From the NCBI GenBank assembly GCA_021819205.1, contig JAKARV010000006.1, positions 1 to 64,000 on the forward strand: a DNA stretch of 64,000 nucleotides, given 5' to 3'. The notes beneath the pieces were generated by a model. It had not been told where the DNA came from, searched no databases, and was given only the letters and a program-made list of their open reading frames with translations. Made by a program: the position numbers and the translations under genes. Positions 55,423-64,000 of the stretch are shown here, in pieces. Source of the stretch: Actinomycetes bacterium (lineage in GTDB: Bacteria > Actinomycetota > Acidimicrobiia > Acidimicrobiales > Acidimicrobiaceae). Numbering within the stretch: position 1 is the first letter of the stretch; the number at the start of each line of letters is the position of its first letter.

Positions 55423-56691
55423 ATGAAAATTCGTAAGTTCCTGTCCGCAGCCCTTTCGGTGACTGCGCTTGGTGCGTTGGCGGCTGCATGCGGCTCGTCC
55501 TCCTCGAGCAGCTCGTCCTCGACGACAAGCTCGGCACCCTCGTCGATTACCATTGGGACCGCCTACTCGGGTTCCGGCGCCTTCGCGACCTCGTCGGTTC
55601 CGGAGCTGAACGGCCTGAAGCTGTGGATGAGTTTGGAGAACGCCAAGGGCGGCGTCTACGTCGGGGCCTACAAGAAGCGGATCCCGTTGAAGCTGATCGC
55701 CTACAACGACCAGAGCAGCGCGCAGACCGCCGGCGTCCAGTACAACCAGCTGATCACCCAGAACAAGGTGAACATTCTGGTAGCCGACTTCGGATCGGTG
55801 CTCACCGCACCCGCCGTCTCCATCGCCCAGGCCCATCACCAGCTCCTCTTCGACCAGAGCGGAACCGGCATTCCGTTCTTCACGCCGGGGAACCCGTACA
55901 TCGTGCTCTGCAACCTGCCGGAGTCGTCGATTTGGCCTACGCCGCTAGCCCAGTACATGATCAGCAAGAAGATCACCAAGGTGGCGATCGTGTACGGGAC
56001 CAACGACTTCGACGCCTCGCAGGCTGAGACGGTTCAGGCGAAGTTGAAGGCGGCCGGGATCACTCCGGTCTTCTATCAGGGAATCCCGACCTCGACCACC
56101 AGTTACGGCACCATCCTAACCTCGATCGCCGCCACGCACCCGCAGGCGGTCCTCGAGTTGGGTTACCAGCCGAACGATACCGCGTTCCTGCAGGCGCTCC
56201 AGTCCTCGGGGCTCCACTTCCCGATGGTCTTCACCGTCTTCCCGGGGCAGCTCTTCAGCCTCTTCCAGCAGCAGGTCGGCAACGCTGGTTTGCAGTACAC
56301 CTACACCTACGCGACCAACTTCTTCCACAACTACACCTCGGTCAACGAGGGGTTGAACAGTGCGCAGTTCCTTGCGACGCTGAAGAAGCAGTACCCGTCG
56401 TCGGTCAACACCCTTGGCCTGCTCGGATACAACACCGGTCTGGTCGTTGAGGCGGCGCTGAAGAATGCGACCTCGCTCTCGCAGCTGGCACTTCGAAACG
56501 CCCTCACCAAGGTGTCCGGGAACCTGAACACCGTTGATGGCAACTTCAAGATCAACTCCGAGGGTGCCCAGATCGGCGAGTTGCTTCCGGTGGCGCAGAT
56601 TCTTCCATCCGGATCGACCACTAAGATTGGGATCGTCTATCCGAGTTCGGCGGCTAACGCGACGGCGGTATACCCAGCGCCCGGAGCGTAG
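55423..56691 (+). CDS. livK: Branched-chain amino-acid-type ABC transporter, substrate-binding lipoprotein
   Basis: A 422-residue periplasmic-binding-fold protein (type I, Leu/Ile/Val-binding family) anchored by a lipobox LAAAC (Cys near residue 23), followed by a run of serines that acts as a linker. The two-lobe domain starts at ITIGTAYSGSGAFA. ATG 55423 follows AGGGGGAG. The ligand may be a branched-chain amino acid, amide, urea or other small compound, as the family is broad. It is the first gene of a complete five-gene operon. Confidence 0.9.
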   Translation: MKIRKFLSAALSVTALGALAAACGSSSSSSSSSTTSSAPSSITIGTAYSGSGAFATSSVPELNGLKLWMSLENAKGGVYVGAYKKRIPLKLIAYNDQSSAQTAGVQYNQLITQNKVNILVADFGSVLTAPAVSIAQAHHQLLFDQSGTGIPFFTPGNPYIVLCNLPESSIWPTPLAQYMISKKITKVAIVYGTNDFDASQAETVQAKLKAAGITPVFYQGIPTSTTSYGTILTSIAATHPQAVLELGYQPNDTAFLQALQSSGLHFPMVFTVFPGQLFSLFQQQVGNAGLQYTYTYATNFFHNYTSVNEGLNSAQFLATLKKQYPSSVNTLGLLGYNTGLVVEAALKNATSLSQLALRNALTKVSGNLNTVDGNFKINSEGAQIGELLPVAQILPSGSTTKIGIVYPSSAANATAVYPAPGA

Positions 56692-56719
56692 TTTCGTCCT
56701 TAAGGTTACTGTCAATGGC

Positions 56720-56749
56720 ATCGAGAGGGGAGTTCGCTCCCCTCTCGAT
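56720..56749 (+). terminator. Strong hairpin between livK and livH
   Basis: A 13-bp perfect stem ATCGAGAGGGGAG with a TTCG loop lies between the binding-protein gene and the first permease gene. No U tract follows. Such hairpins usually stabilise the upstream mRNA and partly block read-through, letting the binding protein be made in excess over the membrane parts. Confidence 0.65.
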
Positions 56750-56764
56750 CTTGTGGAGGCATAG

Positions 56765-57643
56765 GTGCTTGTTGAGTACTCGATAGTTGCCGGCGTACTG
56801 CTCGGCCTGTTCTACGCGTTGATGGCGATGGGCCTCAATCTGGTTTTTGGCGTGCAGCGGATCATCAACCTTGCTCACGGCGACATGGTGATGCTCGGCG
56901 GCTTCGGGGCCTGGGAGCTTTACTACGGATACCACCTAAACCCGGTGGTGGCGATAGTGGTGATGATCCCGATCACGGTTGCAGTGGGTTTTGGCCTTTA
57001 CTACCTGCTGATTCCCCGGCTCAAGAGCGCTGTCGACTTCGAGACGCTTTCCCTGGTGCTTTTTTTTGGAGTGTCCCAGGTTGTCGAGGCGCTCGCGGCG
57101 CTTGGATTTGGGAACAACGAGCGGAGCCTCCCGGTGAGCTCGATACCATCGCACCCGGTTAACTTCTTGGGCCAGCCGTATCCGGCGGACTGGTGGGTGG
57201 CGGCCGGGGTCGCGCTCCCGCTGCTTGCGATCTTCTTCCTCTACCTGTACCGGACCCGCCTCGGACGGGAGACGCGGGCGGTGATGGCCGATGAGCATGA
57301 GGCGGTGAGCGTGGGAATCGATGCCGCCCGGGTCTCGGCGATCTCATTTGGAGTCGGCCTTGCCTTGGCCGCCGCCGCCGGAGTGCTTGCCGTCTTCGTC
57401 TTTGGGGGGGTGGACCCCTCCGAGGGGGTTGGAATCACCATCACCGCCTTTGCCATCATCGTTTTCGGCTCGTTGGGGAGCCCGCTCGGCACGGTGGTGG
57501 GGAGCATCCTCTTTGGAGTGGCGTACCAACTGGCGCAGGTCTATACCCCATCGTGGTCTAACCTCGTTCCCTACGTCTTGGTCATCGGCACCATGCTGCT
57601 GCGCCCGCAGGGACTATTTGGCAGGAGGACACGGATTGCTTGA
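56765..57643 (+). CDS. livH: Branched-chain amino-acid-type ABC permease LivH
   Basis: A 292-residue inner-membrane permease with about eight helices, from GTG 56765 (GGAGG 5 nt before). It contains the family segments MGLNLVFGVQRIINLAHGD near the N-terminus and AFAIIVFGSLGSPLGTVVG near the C-terminus. It forms the translocation channel with LivM. Its end overlaps the start of livM. Confidence 0.92.
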   Translation: MLVEYSIVAGVLLGLFYALMAMGLNLVFGVQRIINLAHGDMVMLGGFGAWELYYGYHLNPVVAIVVMIPITVAVGFGLYYLLIPRLKSAVDFETLSLVLFFGVSQVVEALAALGFGNNERSLPVSSIPSHPVNFLGQPYPADWWVAAGVALPLLAIFFLYLYRTRLGRETRAVMADEHEAVSVGIDAARVSAISFGVGLALAAAAGVLAVFVFGGVDPSEGVGITITAFAIIVFGSLGSPLGTVVGSILFGVAYQLAQVYTPSWSNLVPYVLVIGTMLLRPQGLFGRRTRIA

Positions 57644-58625
57644 TTCGAAGGGGGGCGGGAAGCCGTTGGCCGGGCTGTTGCGCAGGAAGACGCTTCTGCT
57701 CGACCTGCTGGCAGTGGCGATCCCGGTCATTGGCTTTTCATTTGGACTGAACTTCTACTCCAACGAGCTGCTCCTCGTTTACATGATGGTCTACGTGGCG
57801 CTTGCGCACGGGATCAACATCTCCTACGGCTTTACCGGTTACCTTCCCTTCGGCTACTTTGGCTTCTTTGGGGCCGGCGCCTACGGAGCAACCCTCGCGA
57901 TTTTGGACCTTCACGTTCCGGCTCTGCTGGGAATGCTCTTTGGCGGGGTCGCCGGCGTCCTTGTCGGGCTGCTTTTGCTTCCACTGTTCCGGCTTCGCGG
58001 CGCCTACTTCGCTATTGCCACGCTCGCCGCGGGTGAGGCGGTCGCCGATATCGTCGCCAACCCGTCCTTGCAGAGCATCACCAACGGTCCCTACGGCGAA
58101 AACCTGGCTTCGGTCTACTCCTCCGGACAGATCTACGTGGCCGCGTTGGTCTTCATGGCGCTGGCTCTGCTCGCGGTGGTCTTGGTTAAGAACTCCCGCT
58201 TCGGCCTCTCGCTTCGGGCCATCAAGGAGTCGGAGTACTCGGCGGCGATGGCCGGGGTCAACGTGGTTCAACTCCGTTCGCTGGCGTGGGTCATCGCTGC
58301 CGCCATCGCCGGGGTCGGCGGGGCAATTTTTGGCTGGGCTACGACGGTCTTCTATCCATCTGCGGTCTTTGACTCGGCAATTTCGGTCTTTGCGATCGTC
58401 TTTGCGCTCTTTGGCGGAACCGGGAGCGTGTGGGGGCCCACGCTGGGAACGGTGCTGCTCTACGGGCTCTACTCCGCGGTTGGACTCTCCAGCCCGCAGT
58501 ACTTCCAGTTGATCTACGGCCTCGCCATCGTCGGTTTGATCTTGTTTGCTCCGCGGGGACTGGTCGGCTTCGGGCGCGCTGCTGTCCGGCGCCTCTCGCT
58601 GAGGAGGGCAGGTGCCAATGGCTGA
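57636..58625 (+). CDS. livM: Branched-chain amino-acid-type ABC permease LivM
   Basis: A 329-residue inner-membrane permease. The start is TTG 57636 (AGGAGG at 57623-57628), inside the end of livH. It has about nine helices and the LivM motifs GINISYGFTGYLPFGYFGFFG and FALFGGTGSVWGPTLG. Its end overlaps livG by 8 bp. Confidence 0.92.
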   Translation: MLDSKGGGKPLAGLLRRKTLLLDLLAVAIPVIGFSFGLNFYSNELLLVYMMVYVALAHGINISYGFTGYLPFGYFGFFGAGAYGATLAILDLHVPALLGMLFGGVAGVLVGLLLLPLFRLRGAYFAIATLAAGEAVADIVANPSLQSITNGPYGENLASVYSSGQIYVAALVFMALALLAVVLVKNSRFGLSLRAIKESEYSAAMAGVNVVQLRSLAWVIAAAIAGVGGAIFGWATTVFYPSAVFDSAISVFAIVFALFGGTGSVWGPTLGTVLLYGLYSAVGLSSPQYFQLIYGLAIVGLILFAPRGLVGFGRAAVRRLSLRRAGANG

Positions 58626-59331
58626 TGAGATCTTGCGCCTGGAGGGTATCTCCAAGCACTTTGGCGGCTTGAGCGCGCTCCAGGAGGTCTCTTTCTCGGT
58701 CGAGGGCGGCGAGGCCCTAGGCCTCGTTGGTCCTAACGGTTCCGGGAAGACGACGCTGATCAACGTGGTCTGCGGGCTCTACACCCCCAACGCGGGGAAC
58801 ATCTATCTCGAGGGGGCGAAGCTGGGGAAGACGACCCCCCACAAGCTGGCGAAGTCGGGCATCAACCGGACCTTCCAGGTTCCACAACCCTTCGCTTCAC
58901 TGACGGTGCGCGAGAACGTTGAGATCGCGGCGGCCCACCGGAGGGGAGACGGCATGAGCGTCGTCGAGATCCTCGACTTTGTCAATCTGGGAAAGTGGGC
59001 GGGCCAGGAGGCTGGATCGCTCAACGCCGCGCAACAGAAGCGGCTCGACCTTGGCCGCGCGCTTGCGCTCAACCCGAAGGTGCTCTTCGTTGACGAGCTT
59101 GGTGCCGGGCTGAACCCCGCCGAGCTTGCCGAGGTCGCGGCGATGCTTCGGAGCTTGCTCAACGGAGGCCGGGCACTGGTGGTGGTCGAGCATCTTATGG
59201 GGTTTTTGGACAAGCTGGTGGACAGGGTGATCGTGTTGAACGCCGGACGCGAGATCTTCCACGGCGGTCTCCGCTCCGCACTCGACGATGGCGAGGTAAA
59301 GAGGGTGTTTCTTGGAACCGTTGGCGCTTGA
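58618..59331 (+). CDS. livG: Branched-chain amino-acid-type ABC ATPase LivG
   Basis: A 237-residue nucleotide-binding subunit from ATG 58618. Walker A is GPNGSGKTTL, Walker B VLFVDELGAGL and the H-loop VVEHLM. The signature region reads LNAAQQKRLDLGRAL, where the usual LSxGQ is LNAAQQ, as tolerated in LivG-type proteins, which often have LPYGxQ. This weakened signature is worth noting. It overlaps livF by 20 bp. Confidence 0.9.
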   Translation: MADEILRLEGISKHFGGLSALQEVSFSVEGGEALGLVGPNGSGKTTLINVVCGLYTPNAGNIYLEGAKLGKTTPHKLAKSGINRTFQVPQPFASLTVRENVEIAAAHRRGDGMSVVEILDFVNLGKWAGQEAGSLNAAQQKRLDLGRALALNPKVLFVDELGAGLNPAELAEVAAMLRSLLNGGRALVVVEHLMGFLDKLVDRVIVLNAGREIFHGGLRSALDDGEVKRVFLGTVGA

Positions 59332-60037
59332 AATTACCGGAGTGTCCAGTGGATACGGCCGGGTGCAGGTCCTTTGGGATGTGAGCTTCTCCGTGAAGCA
59401 GGGTAGCTCCATCGTGCTTCTGGGTGCGAATGGAGCCGGGAAGACCACGCTGTTGAAGGTCGTTGTCGGCCTGGTGAAGGCGTGGTCGGGCGACGTCAAA
59501 GTCTTTGGAGAGGACATTGGGCGTCTCAACACTTCCCACCGGGTGCGTACCGGCATCGCCTACATGAGCGAACAGGGCATCTTTCCAAGCTTGAGCGTCA
59601 AGGAGAACTTGGCGCTCGGCGCGGGGAGGGTGGCAAAGAGCGAGGTGCAGGATCGGCTCGCGACGGTTTATGAGATGTTTCCGGAGCTGGTCCAGCGGGG
59701 GAAGAGCCTTGCCGGCTCGCTCTCGGGCGGCCAGCGGAAGATGGTGGGGATCTCCAAGTGCCTGATGTCCAAGCCCAAGCTCCTGATCCTTGACGAGCCC
59801 TCGTCGGGGCTTTCGCCGAGGTACGTTGCCGAGGTGGTGGAGCAGCTGCAGACGCTGCGGGGGGTGGGCATCACCATGGTGGTTGCGGAGCAGAACGTTT
59901 CGTTTCTCGAGACCGCCGACTCCGCCTGCGTCCTCGAGGGCGGGAGGATCAACTTTGCAGGGGGAGTCGAGGAGTTCGAGGGAGACGAGGCGCTCCACGC
60001 CGCCTTCTTCGGCCTCGAGGGCATCCAAGAGGTCTAG
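59312..60037 (+). CDS. livF: Branched-chain amino-acid-type ABC ATPase LivF
   Basis: A 241-residue second nucleotide-binding subunit from TTG 59312. Walker A is GANGAGKTTLL, the signature SLSGGQRKMVGISK is canonical, Walker B is LLILDEPSSGLS and the H-loop is VVAEQNV. With LivG it makes the ATPase pair of the importer. An intrinsic terminator follows 22 bp after the stop. Confidence 0.92.
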   Translation: MEPLALEITGVSSGYGRVQVLWDVSFSVKQGSSIVLLGANGAGKTTLLKVVVGLVKAWSGDVKVFGEDIGRLNTSHRVRTGIAYMSEQGIFPSLSVKENLALGAGRVAKSEVQDRLATVYEMFPELVQRGKSLAGSLSGGQRKMVGISKCLMSKPKLLILDEPSSGLSPRYVAEVVEQLQTLRGVGITMVVAEQNVSFLETADSACVLEGGRINFAGGVEEFEGDEALHAAFFGLEGIQEV

Positions 60038-60130: not shown

Positions 60131-60164
60131 TAACCGCTGTTAGGTGCTATGCTAACCACCGTTA
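60131..60164. promoter_or_regulatory. Pair of TAAC-N4-GTTA inverted repeats (operator)
   Basis: TAACCGCTGTTA (60131-60142) and TAACCACCGTTA (60153-60164) are two copies of the same dyad, 22 bp centre to centre, about two helical turns. The -10-like TATGCT (60148-60153) lies between them. This is the geometry of a repressor binding as two dimers on one face of the DNA, 25 bp ahead of the membrane-protein operon. The regulator is not identified. Confidence 0.55.
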
Positions 60165-60188
60165 GTACACAGAACGCGAAAGATTGCC

Positions 60189-60971
60189 ATGGGAGGGGAT
60201 GTGACTGGCTGGTTCTTGTTTGCCGCCGCCTTCTTGGCCTGCACCGTTGAGGCGGTCGAGGCTACGACGGTGGTGATGGCGGTTGGGCTTACCCGCGGCT
60301 GGCGCTCGCCGTTGCGGGGAGCGTTGGCCGCGATCGGAGTGCTGGCGGTGATCGTAGCTGCGCTGGGTCCGGCGCTAACCGTCATTCCGATCGGGGTGCT
60401 TCGGATGGTTGTCGGCTCGCTGCTGCTTATTTTCGGGCTCGGGTGGTTGCGCAAGGCGATACTGCGTGCCTCGGGATACAAGGCCCTCCACGACGAAGAC
60501 GAGATCTTTGCCAGGCAGCGCGCTGCGGCGGAGTCGGCCTCGCCGGGCGATTCCGGCAGCTTTCACGGCGGTGATCCGTACTCCTTCACGCTCTCCTTCA
60601 AAGCGGTCCTTCTCGAGGGGCTGGAGGTGGCGTTCATCGTGATCACCTTTGGCGCCAACGCCAACGCGATTCCGCTCGCTTCGGTAGCGGCGGCGGCGGC
60701 GATCGCAGTGACCGTGCTGGTGGCGTTGATAGTGCGCGGGCCGCTATCCCGGGTCCCGGAGAACACTATCAAGTTCGTGGTAGGCATGCTTCTTACCAGC
60801 TTTGGCACCTTTTGGAGCGCCGAGGGGGCGGGTGCGCACTGGCCGGGTTCCGACGCCTCTCTCCTCGCCATCGTTCCTTTCGTCGCGGCGGTCTCGCTGC
60901 TTCTGGTAGGGCAACTCCGGTACCGGTACCGGACATCTTCCGGGGGTTCGGCTCGGGCGGTGCTGCCGTGA
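60189..60971 (+). CDS. Polytopic membrane protein with two E-x-x-E motifs, putative metal transporter (COG4280-like)
   Basis: A 260-residue membrane protein with about seven helices from ATG 60189. Two helices carry acidic motifs: TVEAVEATTVVMAVGLTRG near residue 20 and LLEGLEVAFIVITFG near residue 145. They look like the duplicated E-x-x-E helices of FTR1-type iron permeases or the acidic motifs of UPF0016/GDT1 manganese transporters. A charged, His-containing loop separates the halves. Metal transport is inferred from the motifs only. Its stop overlaps the next start (GTGA), and a ChrB-N-type gene follows. Confidence 0.65.
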   Translation: MGGDVTGWFLFAAAFLACTVEAVEATTVVMAVGLTRGWRSPLRGALAAIGVLAVIVAALGPALTVIPIGVLRMVVGSLLLIFGLGWLRKAILRASGYKALHDEDEIFARQRAAAESASPGDSGSFHGGDPYSFTLSFKAVLLEGLEVAFIVITFGANANAIPLASVAAAAAIAVTVLVALIVRGPLSRVPENTIKFVVGMLLTSFGTFWSAEGAGAHWPGSDASLLAIVPFVAAVSLLLVGQLRYRYRTSSGGSARAVLP

Positions 60972-61186
60972 TCCGCGCTGGCTTTGCGTTGAAGTCCTTT
61001 GGTCGCTTTCTGTGGAAGTTCATCGTCGGGGACGACCTTACGCTCGCCATTGGGGTGCTTTTGGGAGCCATCGGGGTGGCTGTTGCGGCGCGTTCAACCG
61101 GTGCGGCCTGGTTAATTCTCCCACTGCTGTGGGTGGTCGCCCTCTTCATCTCCCTGCGCAGGGCGACTAGGCGCAATGGAGCCTGA
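60968..61186 (+). CDS. Small membrane protein
   Basis: A 72-residue protein from GTG 60968, overlapping the stop of the preceding gene. It has a short amphipathic start (ALKSFGRFLWKFIVGDD), two hydrophobic helices (LAIGVLLGAIGVAVAA and WLILPLLWVVALFI) and a basic tail (RRATRRNG). It overlaps the next gene by 11 bp. No family was recognised. Tight coupling on both sides suggests a subunit or accessory of the adjacent transporter. Confidence 0.6.
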   Translation: MIRAGFALKSFGRFLWKFIVGDDLTLAIGVLLGAIGVAVAARSTGAAWLILPLLWVVALFISLRRATRRNGA

Positions 61187-61760
61187 GCAGGTAGGCGTCG
61201 GCCGCAACGAGCCCGCTTCCGCCGGAAACCGGGGAGACCGCTGGCTTCTCCTCGCCTATCGGGTTCCCAGCGATCCCAGCAGGCTAAGGGCGTCGATCTG
61301 GAGAAAATTGAAGACTCTAGGGGCCGTCTATCTCGTAAACGGCGCAGCGGTGCTTCCGGAGAGCCCGGCGGCGCGTCGAGCCCTCCGGCGCCTCCGGAGC
61401 GAGATCGTTGACGAGATGGACGGCTTTGCCGTGCTCCTTGGGTGCGGCCCGCTCGCCGGCGGCGAGGAGATCGCGGCGATCTTCAACGCCGCCAGAGATG
61501 ACGAGTACGAGGAGATCGTCGACCGCTGCGAAGACTTTGTATCCGGCGTGGCCAAGGAGATCGCCGCCGACCACTTCACCTTTGCCGAGCTGGAGGAGAA
61601 CGAGGAGGATCTCGCGAAGTTGAAGCGGTGGTTGGAGAAGGTGCGGAGCCGCGATGCCTTGGGGAGTGCCGGCCTCGCCGGGGCGGAGTCGGCAATAGAG
61701 CGCTGCGCCGCTGTTCTCGACGACTACGCGGAGCGCGTCTACCGGCGTGAAGAGGTCTAG
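61176..61760 (+). CDS. ChrB N-terminal-domain protein
   Basis: A 194-residue soluble protein from ATG 61176. Residues 23-70 (WLLLAYRVPSDPSRLRASIW, then KLKTLGAVYLVNGAAVLP) match the N-terminal domain of chromate-resistance protein ChrB. The C-terminal chromate-resistance domain of full-length ChrB is absent and is replaced by an acidic helical tail. ChrB is a chromate-responsive regulator in studied systems. No chrA chromate pump is in the window. A regulatory or sensing role for the adjoining membrane proteins is the simplest guess. Confidence 0.7.
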   Translation: MEPEQVGVGRNEPASAGNRGDRWLLLAYRVPSDPSRLRASIWRKLKTLGAVYLVNGAAVLPESPAARRALRRLRSEIVDEMDGFAVLLGCGPLAGGEEIAAIFNAARDDEYEEIVDRCEDFVSGVAKEIAADHFTFAELEENEEDLAKLKRWLEKVRSRDALGSAGLAGAESAIERCAAVLDDYAERVYRREEV

Positions 61761-61903: not shown

Positions 61904-61924
61904 GAGACGGAGGGAGTGGCGGTA

Positions 61925-63073
61925 TTGGCATCGATCAGGCTTGATGGGGTCAGCAAGAGTTACGGCAAGGACCACGACCGCGCGGTCGCCGATGTGGACC
62001 TCTCGATTGCCCAAGGGGAATTTGTCGTCTTGCTTGGACCTTCCGGATGCGGAAAGACGAGCACGCTTCGACTGATTGCCGGCTTGGAGAAGCCGACCGC
62101 AGGCTCGATCAGCTTTGACGGCACTGTGGTCAACGAGCTTCCCGGGTCGAGCCGCGGAGTCGGCATGGTCTTCCAGAACTATGCGCTCTACCCGCATATG
62201 ACGGTCTTTGAGAATCTTGCCTTTGGCCTCCGCTCCCGCGGAGTCGGCAAACAGGAGACCGCGGCCCGGGTGGCGGAGGTGCTCGAGTTGTTAGAGCTGT
62301 CGGAACTTGCCAGGCGCCGGCCCCGCGAGCTCTCCGGGGGGCAGCGGCAGCGGGTTGCTCTTGGCCGGGCTCTGGTTGGGAGGCCGTCGGTCTTTCTCAT
62401 GGACGAGCCGCTCTCCAACCTCGACGCCAACCTCCGCGAGCAGATGCGGATCGAGCTTGGCAGGCTACATGGCCGGCTGGGGATCACCACCGTCTACGTC
62501 ACCCACGATCAGGGGGAGGCGATGACGCTCGCCGACCGGGTCGTGGTAATGGAGGGTGGCAGGATCCGGCAGGTCGGCACCCCTAAGGACATCTACAACG
62601 CTCCCTCGGATACCTTTGTGGCGCGCTTCATCGGATCTCCGGGCATGAATGTGCTGGCTCTGCCGTGGCGCCGAGACGGCGAGCAGGTACTTTGCGGCGA
62701 GTCGGTGAGCTTTCCTGCCGAGTGGCTTCCCATGGGTGGTGAGGCCGGGCGAGTCGTCCTTGGCATCCGGCCCGAGCAGCTTTCGCTGGCGGAGGTGTCG
62801 GGGAACGCTCACTTCTCTTGCCGGGTCGACGTGGTCGAACAGCTTGGCAGCCATCAACAGGCGCACCTGGTGCTCGCCGGCGGGCAAGACGCCAACCGGC
62901 TTGTCGCGAGACTCTCCGGTGATGCCGCGGTCTCGGCGGGTGATACCCTGAAGCTGAGCGCCAGCGGCGGCGACCTGCGCTTCTTCGATCCCGACACCGG
63001 TCTTTCGCTCGCCGGCGAAATGTGGTCCGCTGCCGCGGTCCCCGCTGGCGTCGGCGAGATGGAGAGGGGTTAG
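61925..63073 (+). CDS. ugpC: Sugar-type ABC transporter ATPase (MalK/UgpC family)
   Basis: A 382-residue nucleotide-binding subunit. I prefer TTG 61925, since GGAGG at 61909-61913 is only 2 nt from the in-frame GTG at 61916. Walker A is GPSGCGKTS, the Q-loop VFQNYALYPHMTV, the signature LSGGQRQRVALGR, Walker B VFLMDEPLSNLD and the H-loop VTHDQ. A C-terminal TOBE/OB regulatory domain (about 240-365) places it among MalK/UgpC/MsmX proteins importing sugars, polyols or glycerol-3-phosphate. A permease gene follows after 4 bp. Confidence 0.9.
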   Translation: MASIRLDGVSKSYGKDHDRAVADVDLSIAQGEFVVLLGPSGCGKTSTLRLIAGLEKPTAGSISFDGTVVNELPGSSRGVGMVFQNYALYPHMTVFENLAFGLRSRGVGKQETAARVAEVLELLELSELARRRPRELSGGQRQRVALGRALVGRPSVFLMDEPLSNLDANLREQMRIELGRLHGRLGITTVYVTHDQGEAMTLADRVVVMEGGRIRQVGTPKDIYNAPSDTFVARFIGSPGMNVLALPWRRDGEQVLCGESVSFPAEWLPMGGEAGRVVLGIRPEQLSLAEVSGNAHFSCRVDVVEQLGSHQQAHLVLAGGQDANRLVARLSGDAAVSAGDTLKLSASGGDLRFFDPDTGLSLAGEMWSAAAVPAGVGEMERG

Positions 63074-63077
63074 CGCC

Positions 63078-64000
63078 TTGGCCCTCGATCTTGCTCTTCG
63101 CGAGCCCCGGGTCGATTTTGGCGAGGTTTCCCGGCGGAGGCGGCTGGCGCTTCCACCGCGGCTGGCGGCCGTCCAGGAGAAGCTGGTCGGTTACGGCCTG
63201 GTGCTCCCGGCGGCCGCGGTCTTCACCGTCTTTTTCTACATTCCGGCCATCTACCTGCTCTACATCTCCTTTTTCCACTGGAGCATTCTCTCCCCGGCAA
63301 CCGACTTTGTCGGCTTGAAAAACTTTCACACTCTTTTTGCCCAGCCGCTCTTTTGGAAGTCGCTTCTCAACTCCGCGTACTACACGGTGGTGATGATACC
63401 GGCCACGGTCTTTCTGGCTCTGGGCGTTGCGCTGCTTCTCCGGGAGGGGCTGACCGCAAAGCGCGGCGGTGTCTTCCGGGCGGCGGTATTTCTTCCCCAC
63501 GTTACCCCGGTGGTCGCCACGTCGATCATCTGGGTGTGGATCTTCAATCCGCACTTCGGGCTGGCCAACTACCTGCTCAACCTGGTGCATCTACCGGCTT
63601 TGGGCTGGTTGGAGAGCACCCAGTGGGCGCTCCCGGCGGTGATGATCGATTCACTCTGGCACTCCTTGGGGCTTTACGTGATCATCTTCCTGGCGGGCCT
63701 CTCCCGGGTGCCGCGGGAGCTGCTTGAGGTCGCGAGCCTTGACGGCGCCAAGCGTTCGCGGATCTTCCGCCGGATCGTATGGCCGATGATCTCGCCAACC
63801 ACCTTCTTCGTAGTAGTGCTCGCCACCATCAACACCTGGCAAGCGTTCTCGCAGATCTACACCATGACCGGCGGTGCGCACGGCGGAGCCGGAGGGCCGG
63901 CCTTTTCCACCACCACCGACGCGGTGCTGGTCTACCAGACCGCCTTCATCTACCTCCACTTCAGCCTGGGCGCCGCCATGAGCGTGGTGCTCTTTCTGAT
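63078..64000 (+). CDS. Sugar-type ABC permease (MalF/UgpA family), cut by the window edge
   Basis: The frame opens at TTG 63078 (GGAGAGGGG upstream) and runs to the end of the window, about 307 codons without a stop. After a basic N-terminus comes the first helix (LVLPAAAVFTVFFYIPAIYL), the family's typical YISFFHWS and FVGLKNF segments, and the cytoplasmic EAA loop EVASLDGAKRSRIFRRIVWP that docks on the ATPase. Only the last helices are missing. A second permease and a binding protein are expected further right. Confidence 0.88.
   Translation, partial: MALDLALREPRVDFGEVSRRRRLALPPRLAAVQEKLVGYGLVLPAAAVFTVFFYIPAIYLLYISFFHWSILSPATDFVGLKNFHTLFAQPLFWKSLLNSAYYTVVMIPATVFLALGVALLLREGLTAKRGGVFRAAVFLPHVTPVVATSIIWVWIFNPHFGLANYLLNLVHLPALGWLESTQWALPAVMIDSLWHSLGLYVIIFLAGLSRVPRELLEVASLDGAKRSRIFRRIVWPMISPTTFFVVVLATINTWQAFSQIYTMTGGAHGGAGGPAFSTTTDAVLVYQTAFIYLHFSLGAAMSVVLFL

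What the first reader, a model, noticed from the sequence alone, without database searches (positions are those of the whole stretch)
60131..61760. Three-gene putative metal-handling operon under a doubled dyad operator
A membrane protein with two E-x-x-E helices, a 72-residue membrane protein and a stand-alone ChrB N-terminal-domain protein are joined by overlapping start and stop codons, behind two TAAC-N4-GTTA dyads flanking a -10-like box. ChrB-N without its C-terminal half and without the ChrA pump suggests a different use of this sensor domain, perhaps with an iron- or manganese-type transporter.
Basis: partly seen in the sequence, partly recalled or inferred. Interest (0 to 1): 0.6.

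Follow-up and report, generated by a model that had tools for sequence, protein, structure and literature searches.

The report
ChrB-N-controlled metal transporter operon
Three overlapping genes encode an iron-transporter-like membrane protein, a small membrane partner and a half-length relative of the chromate regulator ChrB, and comparison of several hundred genomes indicates that the half-length protein is the DNA-binding switch for the doubled palindrome in front of them, giving a widespread, undescribed regulator a target sequence that can be tested.

Summary
Genes of 260, 72 and 194 codons overlap by 4 and 11 bases behind two exact TAAC-N4-GTTA dyads whose starts lie 22 bp apart (0.05 exact dyads expected in 64 kb). 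The doubled dyad recurs in the same register before the same genes in four relatives.

The interpretation needs one correction. The ChrB N-terminal domain is the DNA-binding half of ChrB, not the sensor. The two arginines that published mutagenesis ties to DNA binding (R18, R23) are R38 and R43 here, invariant in 69 proteins.

The operator appears to be read by this protein. In an unbiased palindrome count TAAC-N4-GTTA ranks first around ChrB_N genes. It lies before stand-alone chrB_N genes in Actinobacteria and Alphaproteobacteria, and before chrA-chrB_N-chrB_C chromate operons. Among 80 transporter loci it tracks ChrB_N presence (p = 4e-10). Three loci with a dyad but no neighbouring chrB_N proved to have a strong copy elsewhere in the genome.

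The best reading is an autoregulated ChrB_N repressor controlling an OFeT/FTR1-type transporter and its small partner. Stand-alone proteins share a private set of glutamates absent from chromate-type ChrB, a candidate built-in sensor. The metal, transport direction and inducer are not known. No published description was found.

The parts
60131..60142 (.). operator dyad 1, TAACCGCTGTTA
60153..60164 (.). operator dyad 2, TAACCACCGTTA, start 22 bp from dyad 1
60148..60153 (+). -10-like TATGCT (preceded by TGC, extended -10 type); promoter assignment is inference, not conserved in this exact place outside the genus
   Evidence: sequence; comparison
60189..60971 (+). gene 1: OFeT/FTR1-like membrane transporter, 260 aa (an in-frame GTG at 60201 is an alternative start)
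   Evidence: OFeT_1 28.6 bits, cut-off 26.9; conservation; model
60249..60260 (+). first E-x-x-E (E21, E24), helix 4-36
60615..60626 (+). second E-x-x-E (E143, E146, in LEGLEV), helix 130-157
60968..61186 (+). gene 2: small membrane protein, 72 aa, conserved partner of gene 1, fused to it in some relatives
61176..61760 (+). gene 3: stand-alone ChrB_N, 194 aa, proposed repressor
   Evidence: PF20229 1.5e-44; AlphaFold2 mean pLDDT 93.4
61287..61289 (+). codon of R38, equivalent to ChrB R18 (DNA binding)
61302..61304 (+). codon of R43, equivalent to ChrB R23 (DNA binding)
61461..61754 (+). helical half of gene 3 (residues 96-193) with residues conserved only in stand-alone proteins: E113, C118, E128, E138, E140, E141, W152, C177

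Best explanation
Gene 3 is a stand-alone ChrB_N transcriptional repressor that controls its own operon. It most likely binds as a dimer to each 16-bp palindrome of the form TGTAAC-N4-GTTACA (core TAAC-N4-GTTA). In this operon two such sites lie about two helical turns apart over the promoter, so two dimers on the same face of the DNA would block RNA polymerase. The DNA contacts include R38 and R43 on the first helix of a Cas2/PaaX-like domain, with no helix-turn-helix domain in the protein. When the repressor is released, the operon makes an OFeT/FTR1-type metal transporter (gene 1, two E-x-x-E helices) with its small partner subunit (gene 2). Shown by comparison here: the operon, the conserved doubled dyad, the dyad's association with ChrB_N across two phyla and across operon types, identity of the two arginines with those proven by published mutagenesis, and the fold. 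Inferred: repression rather than activation, cooperative binding, and a cation (iron or manganese most likely) as both cargo and signal. Gene 3 has no ChrB_C; the acidic cluster of its helical half (E113, E128, E138, E141) is the best candidate for signal sensing.
For: Dyad doubled with exact 22-bp register in G000, G001, G029, G032 and G034 and nowhere else as an exact match in 60 related genomes. Unbiased count over 256 half-sites and 13 spacers: TAAC-N4 ranks first in a ChrB_N survey of the phylum (10 of 29 loci, 0.44 expected) and in gene-1 loci with ChrB_N (21 of 28, 0.68 expected). Exact dyad within 320 bp before gene 1 in 20 of 31 loci whose genome has a strong ChrB_N against 1 of 49 without, Fisher p 4e-10; the one exception, L125, lies on a contig that ends just after gene 2. 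Of four dyad-bearing loci without a neighbouring ChrB_N, three genomes had a strong one elsewhere; none of the other 46 genomes searched did at E below 1e-40. Dyad 19-32 bp before the ChrB_N domain where chrB_N starts the unit, and at -27/-28 before alphaproteobacterial chrB_N, inside the 17-bp spacer between TTGACA and a -10-like box in L195. Dyad before chrA in chrA-chrB_N-chrB_C operons. R38/W42/R43 invariant in 69 proteins. Foldseek: PaaX 8a39 first, then Cas2 proteins; PaaX_M matched by 43 of 51. Gene 1 and gene 2 fused in L019, L021, L022, L025 and L029. ChrB as a repressor with R18/R23 needed for DNA binding: PMC3817168.
Against: No binding or expression data. PMC3817168 found the N-terminal half of O. 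tritici ChrB inactive on its own, so stand-alone proteins must have gained independence. About a third of gene-1 loci with a neighbouring ChrB_N lack an exact dyad (five have a one-mismatch site). The ABC importer that shares the operator in some actinobacteria has a binding protein without the tyrosine pair of ferric-binding proteins, which weakens the iron assignment. Stand-alone ChrB_N also sits with MFS transporters, cation transporters and mcr-5, so the signal need not be iron.
Confidence: 0.78

Rival explanations
1. The dyads are bound by a different regulator (for example a LexA-type protein, whose Gram-positive box GAAC-N4-GTTC is similar), and gene 3 has another function, such as acting on the transporter.
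For: No direct binding data. General knowledge: the half-site spacing resembles the Gram-positive SOS box. Another regulator could be inherited together with ChrB_N.
Against: In this genome the only promoter-proximal dyads are those of this operon; the other three exact sites lie inside genes or about 500 bp from the nearest clear gene start. The dyad follows ChrB_N into chromate operons and alphaproteobacterial plasmids whose other genes differ, and into genomes where ChrB_N is unlinked.
Confidence: 0.08
2. The operon is a variant chromate resistance system with gene 1 replacing ChrA.
For: ChrB_N domain; chrA-chrB_N-chrB_C operons use the same operator.
Against: No ChrB_C or ChrA in the genome; gene 1 is unrelated to ChrA and has paired carboxylates suited to cations; the chromate-sensing half is missing.
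Confidence: 0.03
3. The unit exports a metal in excess rather than importing a scarce one: gene 3 lets go of the operator when the metal is high.
For: Half of the gene-1 relatives also match GDT1, a divalent cation/proton antiporter family; alphaproteobacterial copies are annotated TMEM165/GDT1 and sit on plasmids near metal efflux genes; ChrB is relieved by the toxic ion it answers to (PMC3817168).
Against: In several actinobacteria the same operator and ChrB_N accompany a binding-protein-dependent ABC importer; OFeT_1/FTR1 is an uptake family.
Confidence: 0.4
4. Chance neighbourhood and chance palindromes.
For: None found.
Against: Conserved gene order and operator in several genera and two phyla; two exact dyads in 0 of 100 shuffles.
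Confidence: 0.01

Closest known systems
ChrB of chromate resistance operons (Ochrobactrum tritici TnOtChr, PMC3817168)
   Same: N-terminal domain; the two DNA-binding arginines; repressor of its own transport operon; operator near the -10. The promoter repeat reported for O. tritici contains GTAGTAACATCTAC, which is GTA-N8-TAC, the outer part of the consensus found here.
   Different: No ChrB_C sensor half, no ChrA; private conserved glutamates in the helical half; different transporter.
Split chrB-Nterm / chrB-Cterm of Arthrobacter sp. FB24 (PMC2751784)
   Same: ChrB_N as a separate 171-aa gene, in an operon.
   Different: There ChrB_C is encoded by the adjacent gene and chrA is present; the genes are induced by chromate.
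PaaX, phenylacetate repressor (8a39), and Cas2
   Same: Cas2-like domain followed by helices; best fold match and weak profile match.
   Different: No N-terminal winged helix: the Cas2-like domain begins near residue 22.
OFeT / FTR1 iron permeases (PF16955, PF03239)
   Same: Two E-x-x-E helices, LEGLE close to the REGLE motif of FTR1; OFeT_1 above its cut-off.
   Different: Below the FTR1 and EfeU cut-offs; has the small partner protein; half of its relatives also match GDT1.

Membership tests
ChrB (full-length chromate regulator) | ChrB_N domain | tested here: met
   PF20229, E 1.5e-44
ChrB (full-length chromate regulator) | ChrB_C (PF09828) fused or adjacent | tested here: not met
ChrB (full-length chromate regulator) | DNA-binding arginines equivalent to R18 and R23 | tested here: met
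   R38, R43
ChrB (full-length chromate regulator) | linked ChrA | tested here: not met
stand-alone ChrB_N regulators | TGTAAC-N4-GTTACA-type operator in the promoter of their operon | tested here: met
stand-alone ChrB_N regulators | binding of that operator in vitro | not testable with these tools
   needs gel shift or footprinting
PaaX | Cas2-like middle domain | tested here: met
   the single-sequence match is below the Pfam cut-off (19 bits, cut-off 24)
PaaX | N-terminal winged helix-turn-helix | tested here: not met
   first 22 residues without ordered domain
OFeT_1 iron permease | profile above curated cut-off | tested here: met
   28.6 bits, cut-off 26.9; 20 of 20 relatives match
FTR1 / EfeU | profile above curated cut-off | tested here: not met
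   18 bits, cut-off 25.3; 14.4 bits, cut-off 255
GDT1 | profile above curated cut-off | tested here: not met
   15.8 bits, cut-off 27; 10 of 20 relatives match at E below 0.01
Fe/Mn transporter activity | transport of iron or manganese | not testable with these tools
   needs transport or metal-content assays

The most novel reading that the evidence does not exclude
Stand-alone ChrB_N proteins are a widespread family of one-component metal-responsive repressors, so far annotated as chromate resistance protein ChrB, that read a common palindrome through a Cas2-like domain without a helix-turn-helix and sense their ligand through a private glutamate cluster in their helical half.
Probability: 0.5. 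Interest if true: 0.75.

Novelty: new variant of a known kind. Interest (0 to 1): 0.62.

Why it matters
Stand-alone ChrB_N genes are annotated as chromate resistance proteins, yet most of those seen here are not next to a chromate pump. A defined operator, two residues expected to contact it and a private set of candidate ligand residues turn a mis-named family into one that can be tested with a gel shift. The same operator in chromate, cation-transporter, MFS and mcr-5 contexts suggests one modular switch recruited many times. If DNA recognition by a Cas2-like domain without a helix-turn-helix is confirmed, it adds to the known ways in which bacterial repressors read DNA. The published O. tritici promoter repeat can also be re-read: its GTAGTAACATCTAC part fits the family consensus, which could explain why mutating the proposed longer repeat did not abolish binding.

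Tried and rejected
Foldseek of the gene-1 model against solved structures gave no match below E 0.001, and profile search of PDB sequences found none for gene 1 or gene 3. A ferric FbpABC assignment of the ABC transporter found next to gene 1 in some relatives was considered: its binding protein is in that superfamily but lacks the tyrosine pair, and this genome has no close homologue of its permease, so it was dropped as proof of iron. A wider regulon in this genome was looked for: three other exact dyads, none promoter-proximal. The one-mismatch doubled dyad in G008 has no ChrB_N beside it and was counted as chance. A conserved cysteine pair (C118, C177) as the essential sensor was considered and weakened: 7 of 56 stand-alone proteins lack one of the two, while E113, E128 and E138 are kept in all.

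Full report
Observation. The three genes are as described. Gene 1 (60189-60971, 260 aa), gene 2 (60968-61186, 72 aa, GTG start) and gene 3 (61176-61760, 194 aa) overlap by 4 and 11 bases. Two exact TAAC-N4-GTTA dyads lie at 60131 and 60153, upstream of gene 1; the window would hold 0.05 such sites by chance and none of 100 shuffles held two.

The genes. Gene 3 is ChrB_N (PF20229, E 1.5e-44), with a weak match to the Cas2-like domain of PaaX. Gene 1 matches OFeT_1 above its cut-off and FTR1 and GDT1 below theirs; all 20 aligned relatives match OFeT_1 and ten match GDT1. E21, E24, E143 and E146 are invariant in the 20, and the AlphaFold2 model (mean pLDDT 84.5) places each pair inside a long helix. 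A homologue aligns a second time with a shift of about 118 residues, as expected from an internal repeat that puts one E-x-x-E in each half. Gene 2 follows gene 1 in many relatives and is fused to its end in five (L019, L021, L022, L025, L029), which argues for a joint complex.

Conservation. Of 60 related genomes, 33 have gene 1. In the same genus and in several neighbours the order gene 1 - gene 2 - chrB_N is kept. In the wider scan of named genomes, 28 of 80 gene-1 loci have chrB_N within the fetched flanks, often in convergent orientation. In several actinobacteria a binding protein - permease - ATPase operon precedes gene 1, with a dyad before the binding protein and a second one before gene 1 (L068, L087, L095, L096, L112).

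The operator. The doubled dyad with the same 22-bp register is present in G000, G001, G029, G032 and G034, once per genome, each time before gene 1, and nowhere else as an exact match in 60 genomes. To test whether the dyad goes with ChrB_N rather than with gene 1, every palindrome with a 4-base half-site and a spacer of 0 to 12 was counted. TAAC-N4 came first both in a survey of ChrB_N across the phylum that did not use gene 1 (10 of 29 loci, 0.44 expected) and in gene-1 loci with ChrB_N (21 of 28, 0.68 expected) (that script stopped with an error before the third set, so the contrast set was tested). The expectation is from base composition only, so p-values there are indicative, but the rank is not affected.

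Where the sites lie. When chrB_N starts the transcription unit the dyad is 19 to 32 bp before the domain start. In six loci of another actinobacterial family it lies before chrA; in the ones read in full (L152, L154, L155) the order is chrA - chrB_N - chrB_C, a chromate operon. In alphaproteobacterial plasmids it lies at -27/-28 from the start codon; in L195 it fills the 17-bp spacer between TTGACA and a TATACA box. A weaker second site at 22-23 bp is common in other actinobacteria, so doubling is a general tendency. At many sites a TANNNT hexamer begins on the last two bases of the dyad (29 of 50 sites match the -10 consensus at four or more positions, of which two are given by the dyad). This arrangement suits repression.

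Prediction test. Among 52 gene-1 loci without a neighbouring chrB_N, four had an exact dyad within 320 bp before gene 1: L069, L080, L095 and L125. Fifty of these genomes were searched for ChrB_N. Strong matches (E below 1e-40) were found in exactly three, those of L069, L080 and L095. L125 lies on a contig that ends about 700 bp after gene 1. Over all 80 loci, 20 of 31 with a strong ChrB_N in reach have the dyad against 1 of 49 without, Fisher p 4e-10. Genomes of two loci (L132, L133) were not searched and were counted as without.

DNA-binding residues. Published work on O. tritici ChrB shows that it represses its own promoter, that R18A and R23A are constitutive, and that R180, R187 and H229 in the C-terminal half are needed for the chromate response; the authors proposed an N-terminal DNA-binding and a C-terminal metal-detecting part (PMC3817168). 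A Comamonas plasmid carries the identical 34-bp promoter repeat, and its ChrB reads MNLLSLILSLPTENATVRQRTWR, which puts R18 and R23 in the RxxxWR motif. In gene 3 these are R38 and R43, which with W42 are invariant in all 69 proteins aligned. The model of gene 3 (mean pLDDT 93.4) is closest to PaaX (8a39) and then to Cas2 proteins, and 43 of 51 relatives match PaaX_M. R38, W42 and R43 fall in helix 35-48. There is no helix-turn-helix domain before it.

A possible sensor. Stand-alone proteins, whether linked to gene 1 or not, share E113, E128, E138, E140, E141, W152 and usually C118 and C177 in the helical half; chromate-type ChrB proteins do not. E113, E128 and E138 are kept in 56 of 56 stand-alone proteins and E141 in 55; the cysteines are lost singly in seven. 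H133 is mostly limited to gene-1-linked proteins. Since these proteins lack ChrB_C, this cluster is the best candidate for signal sensing, but that is inference.

Same module in another phylum. On plasmids of Roseibium, Frigidibacter and Cereibacter, chrB_N is followed by a protein annotated TMEM165/GDT1; those of Cereibacter and Frigidibacter are 48% identical to gene 1. In all three a small membrane protein follows (in Roseibium as an unannotated reading frame), resembling gene 2 in layout but not detectably by BLAST. The operator is present before each chrB_N.

What is not settled. The cargo and direction of transport are open. OFeT_1 and the shared operator with an ABC importer argue for uptake; the GDT1 similarity and plasmid neighbours argue for export. 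The ABC binding protein lacks the tyrosine pair of ferric-binding proteins, so that link does not prove iron. Repression, rather than activation, is inferred from operator position and from ChrB.

Literature. The library holds no paper with COG4280, COG4275 or PF20229. ChrB with FTR1 gave only general surveys. Separate chrB-Nterm genes are known from Arthrobacter FB24, beside chrB-Cterm and chrA (PMC2751784). Subscription papers are not held, so absence here is not proof of novelty.

Noticed in passing
L164:3495-5696, L165:3112-5316: In Tn3-type elements on an E. coli and a Cupriavidus plasmid, a stand-alone ChrB_N gene directly precedes mcr-5, with a one-mismatch operator-like site 51 bp before the ChrB_N start, suggesting that the same kind of switch sits in front of this known colistin resistance gene.
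   Followed up: partly
L176:2501-2534; L171:1474-1507; L172:1442-1477: Promoters of proteobacterial full-length chrB carry GTA-N8-TAC palindromes, doubled in E. coli and Burkholderia plasmids. The O. tritici-type promoter repeat contains one, which offers another reading of the published inverted repeat.
   Followed up: partly
L068, L087, L095, L096, L112 (SBP-permease-ATPase before gene 1): A binding-protein-dependent ABC importer carries the same operator; its binding protein has QSSA where ferric-binding proteins have the tyrosine pair, so its substrate is unclear.
   Followed up: partly
L019, L021, L022, L025, L029: Gene 1 and gene 2 are fused into one reading frame of about 345-352 codons.
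   Followed up: yes
window 61916-64000 and L032:7632-10623: A sugar-type ABC operon lies beside the three genes in both genomes (ATPase 51% identical), downstream here and divergent upstream there; whether it is linked in function is unknown.
   Followed up: partly
window 55423-60037, L038:2331-6097: A branched-chain-amino-acid-type ABC operon precedes the three genes here and in the other genome of the genus, but not in the other relatives read.
   Followed up: no
L141, L143, L159, L138, L139, L135, L136, L158: Further stand-alone ChrB_N genes in actinobacteria have the operator or a one-mismatch form just before them; the genes they control were not examined.
   Followed up: no
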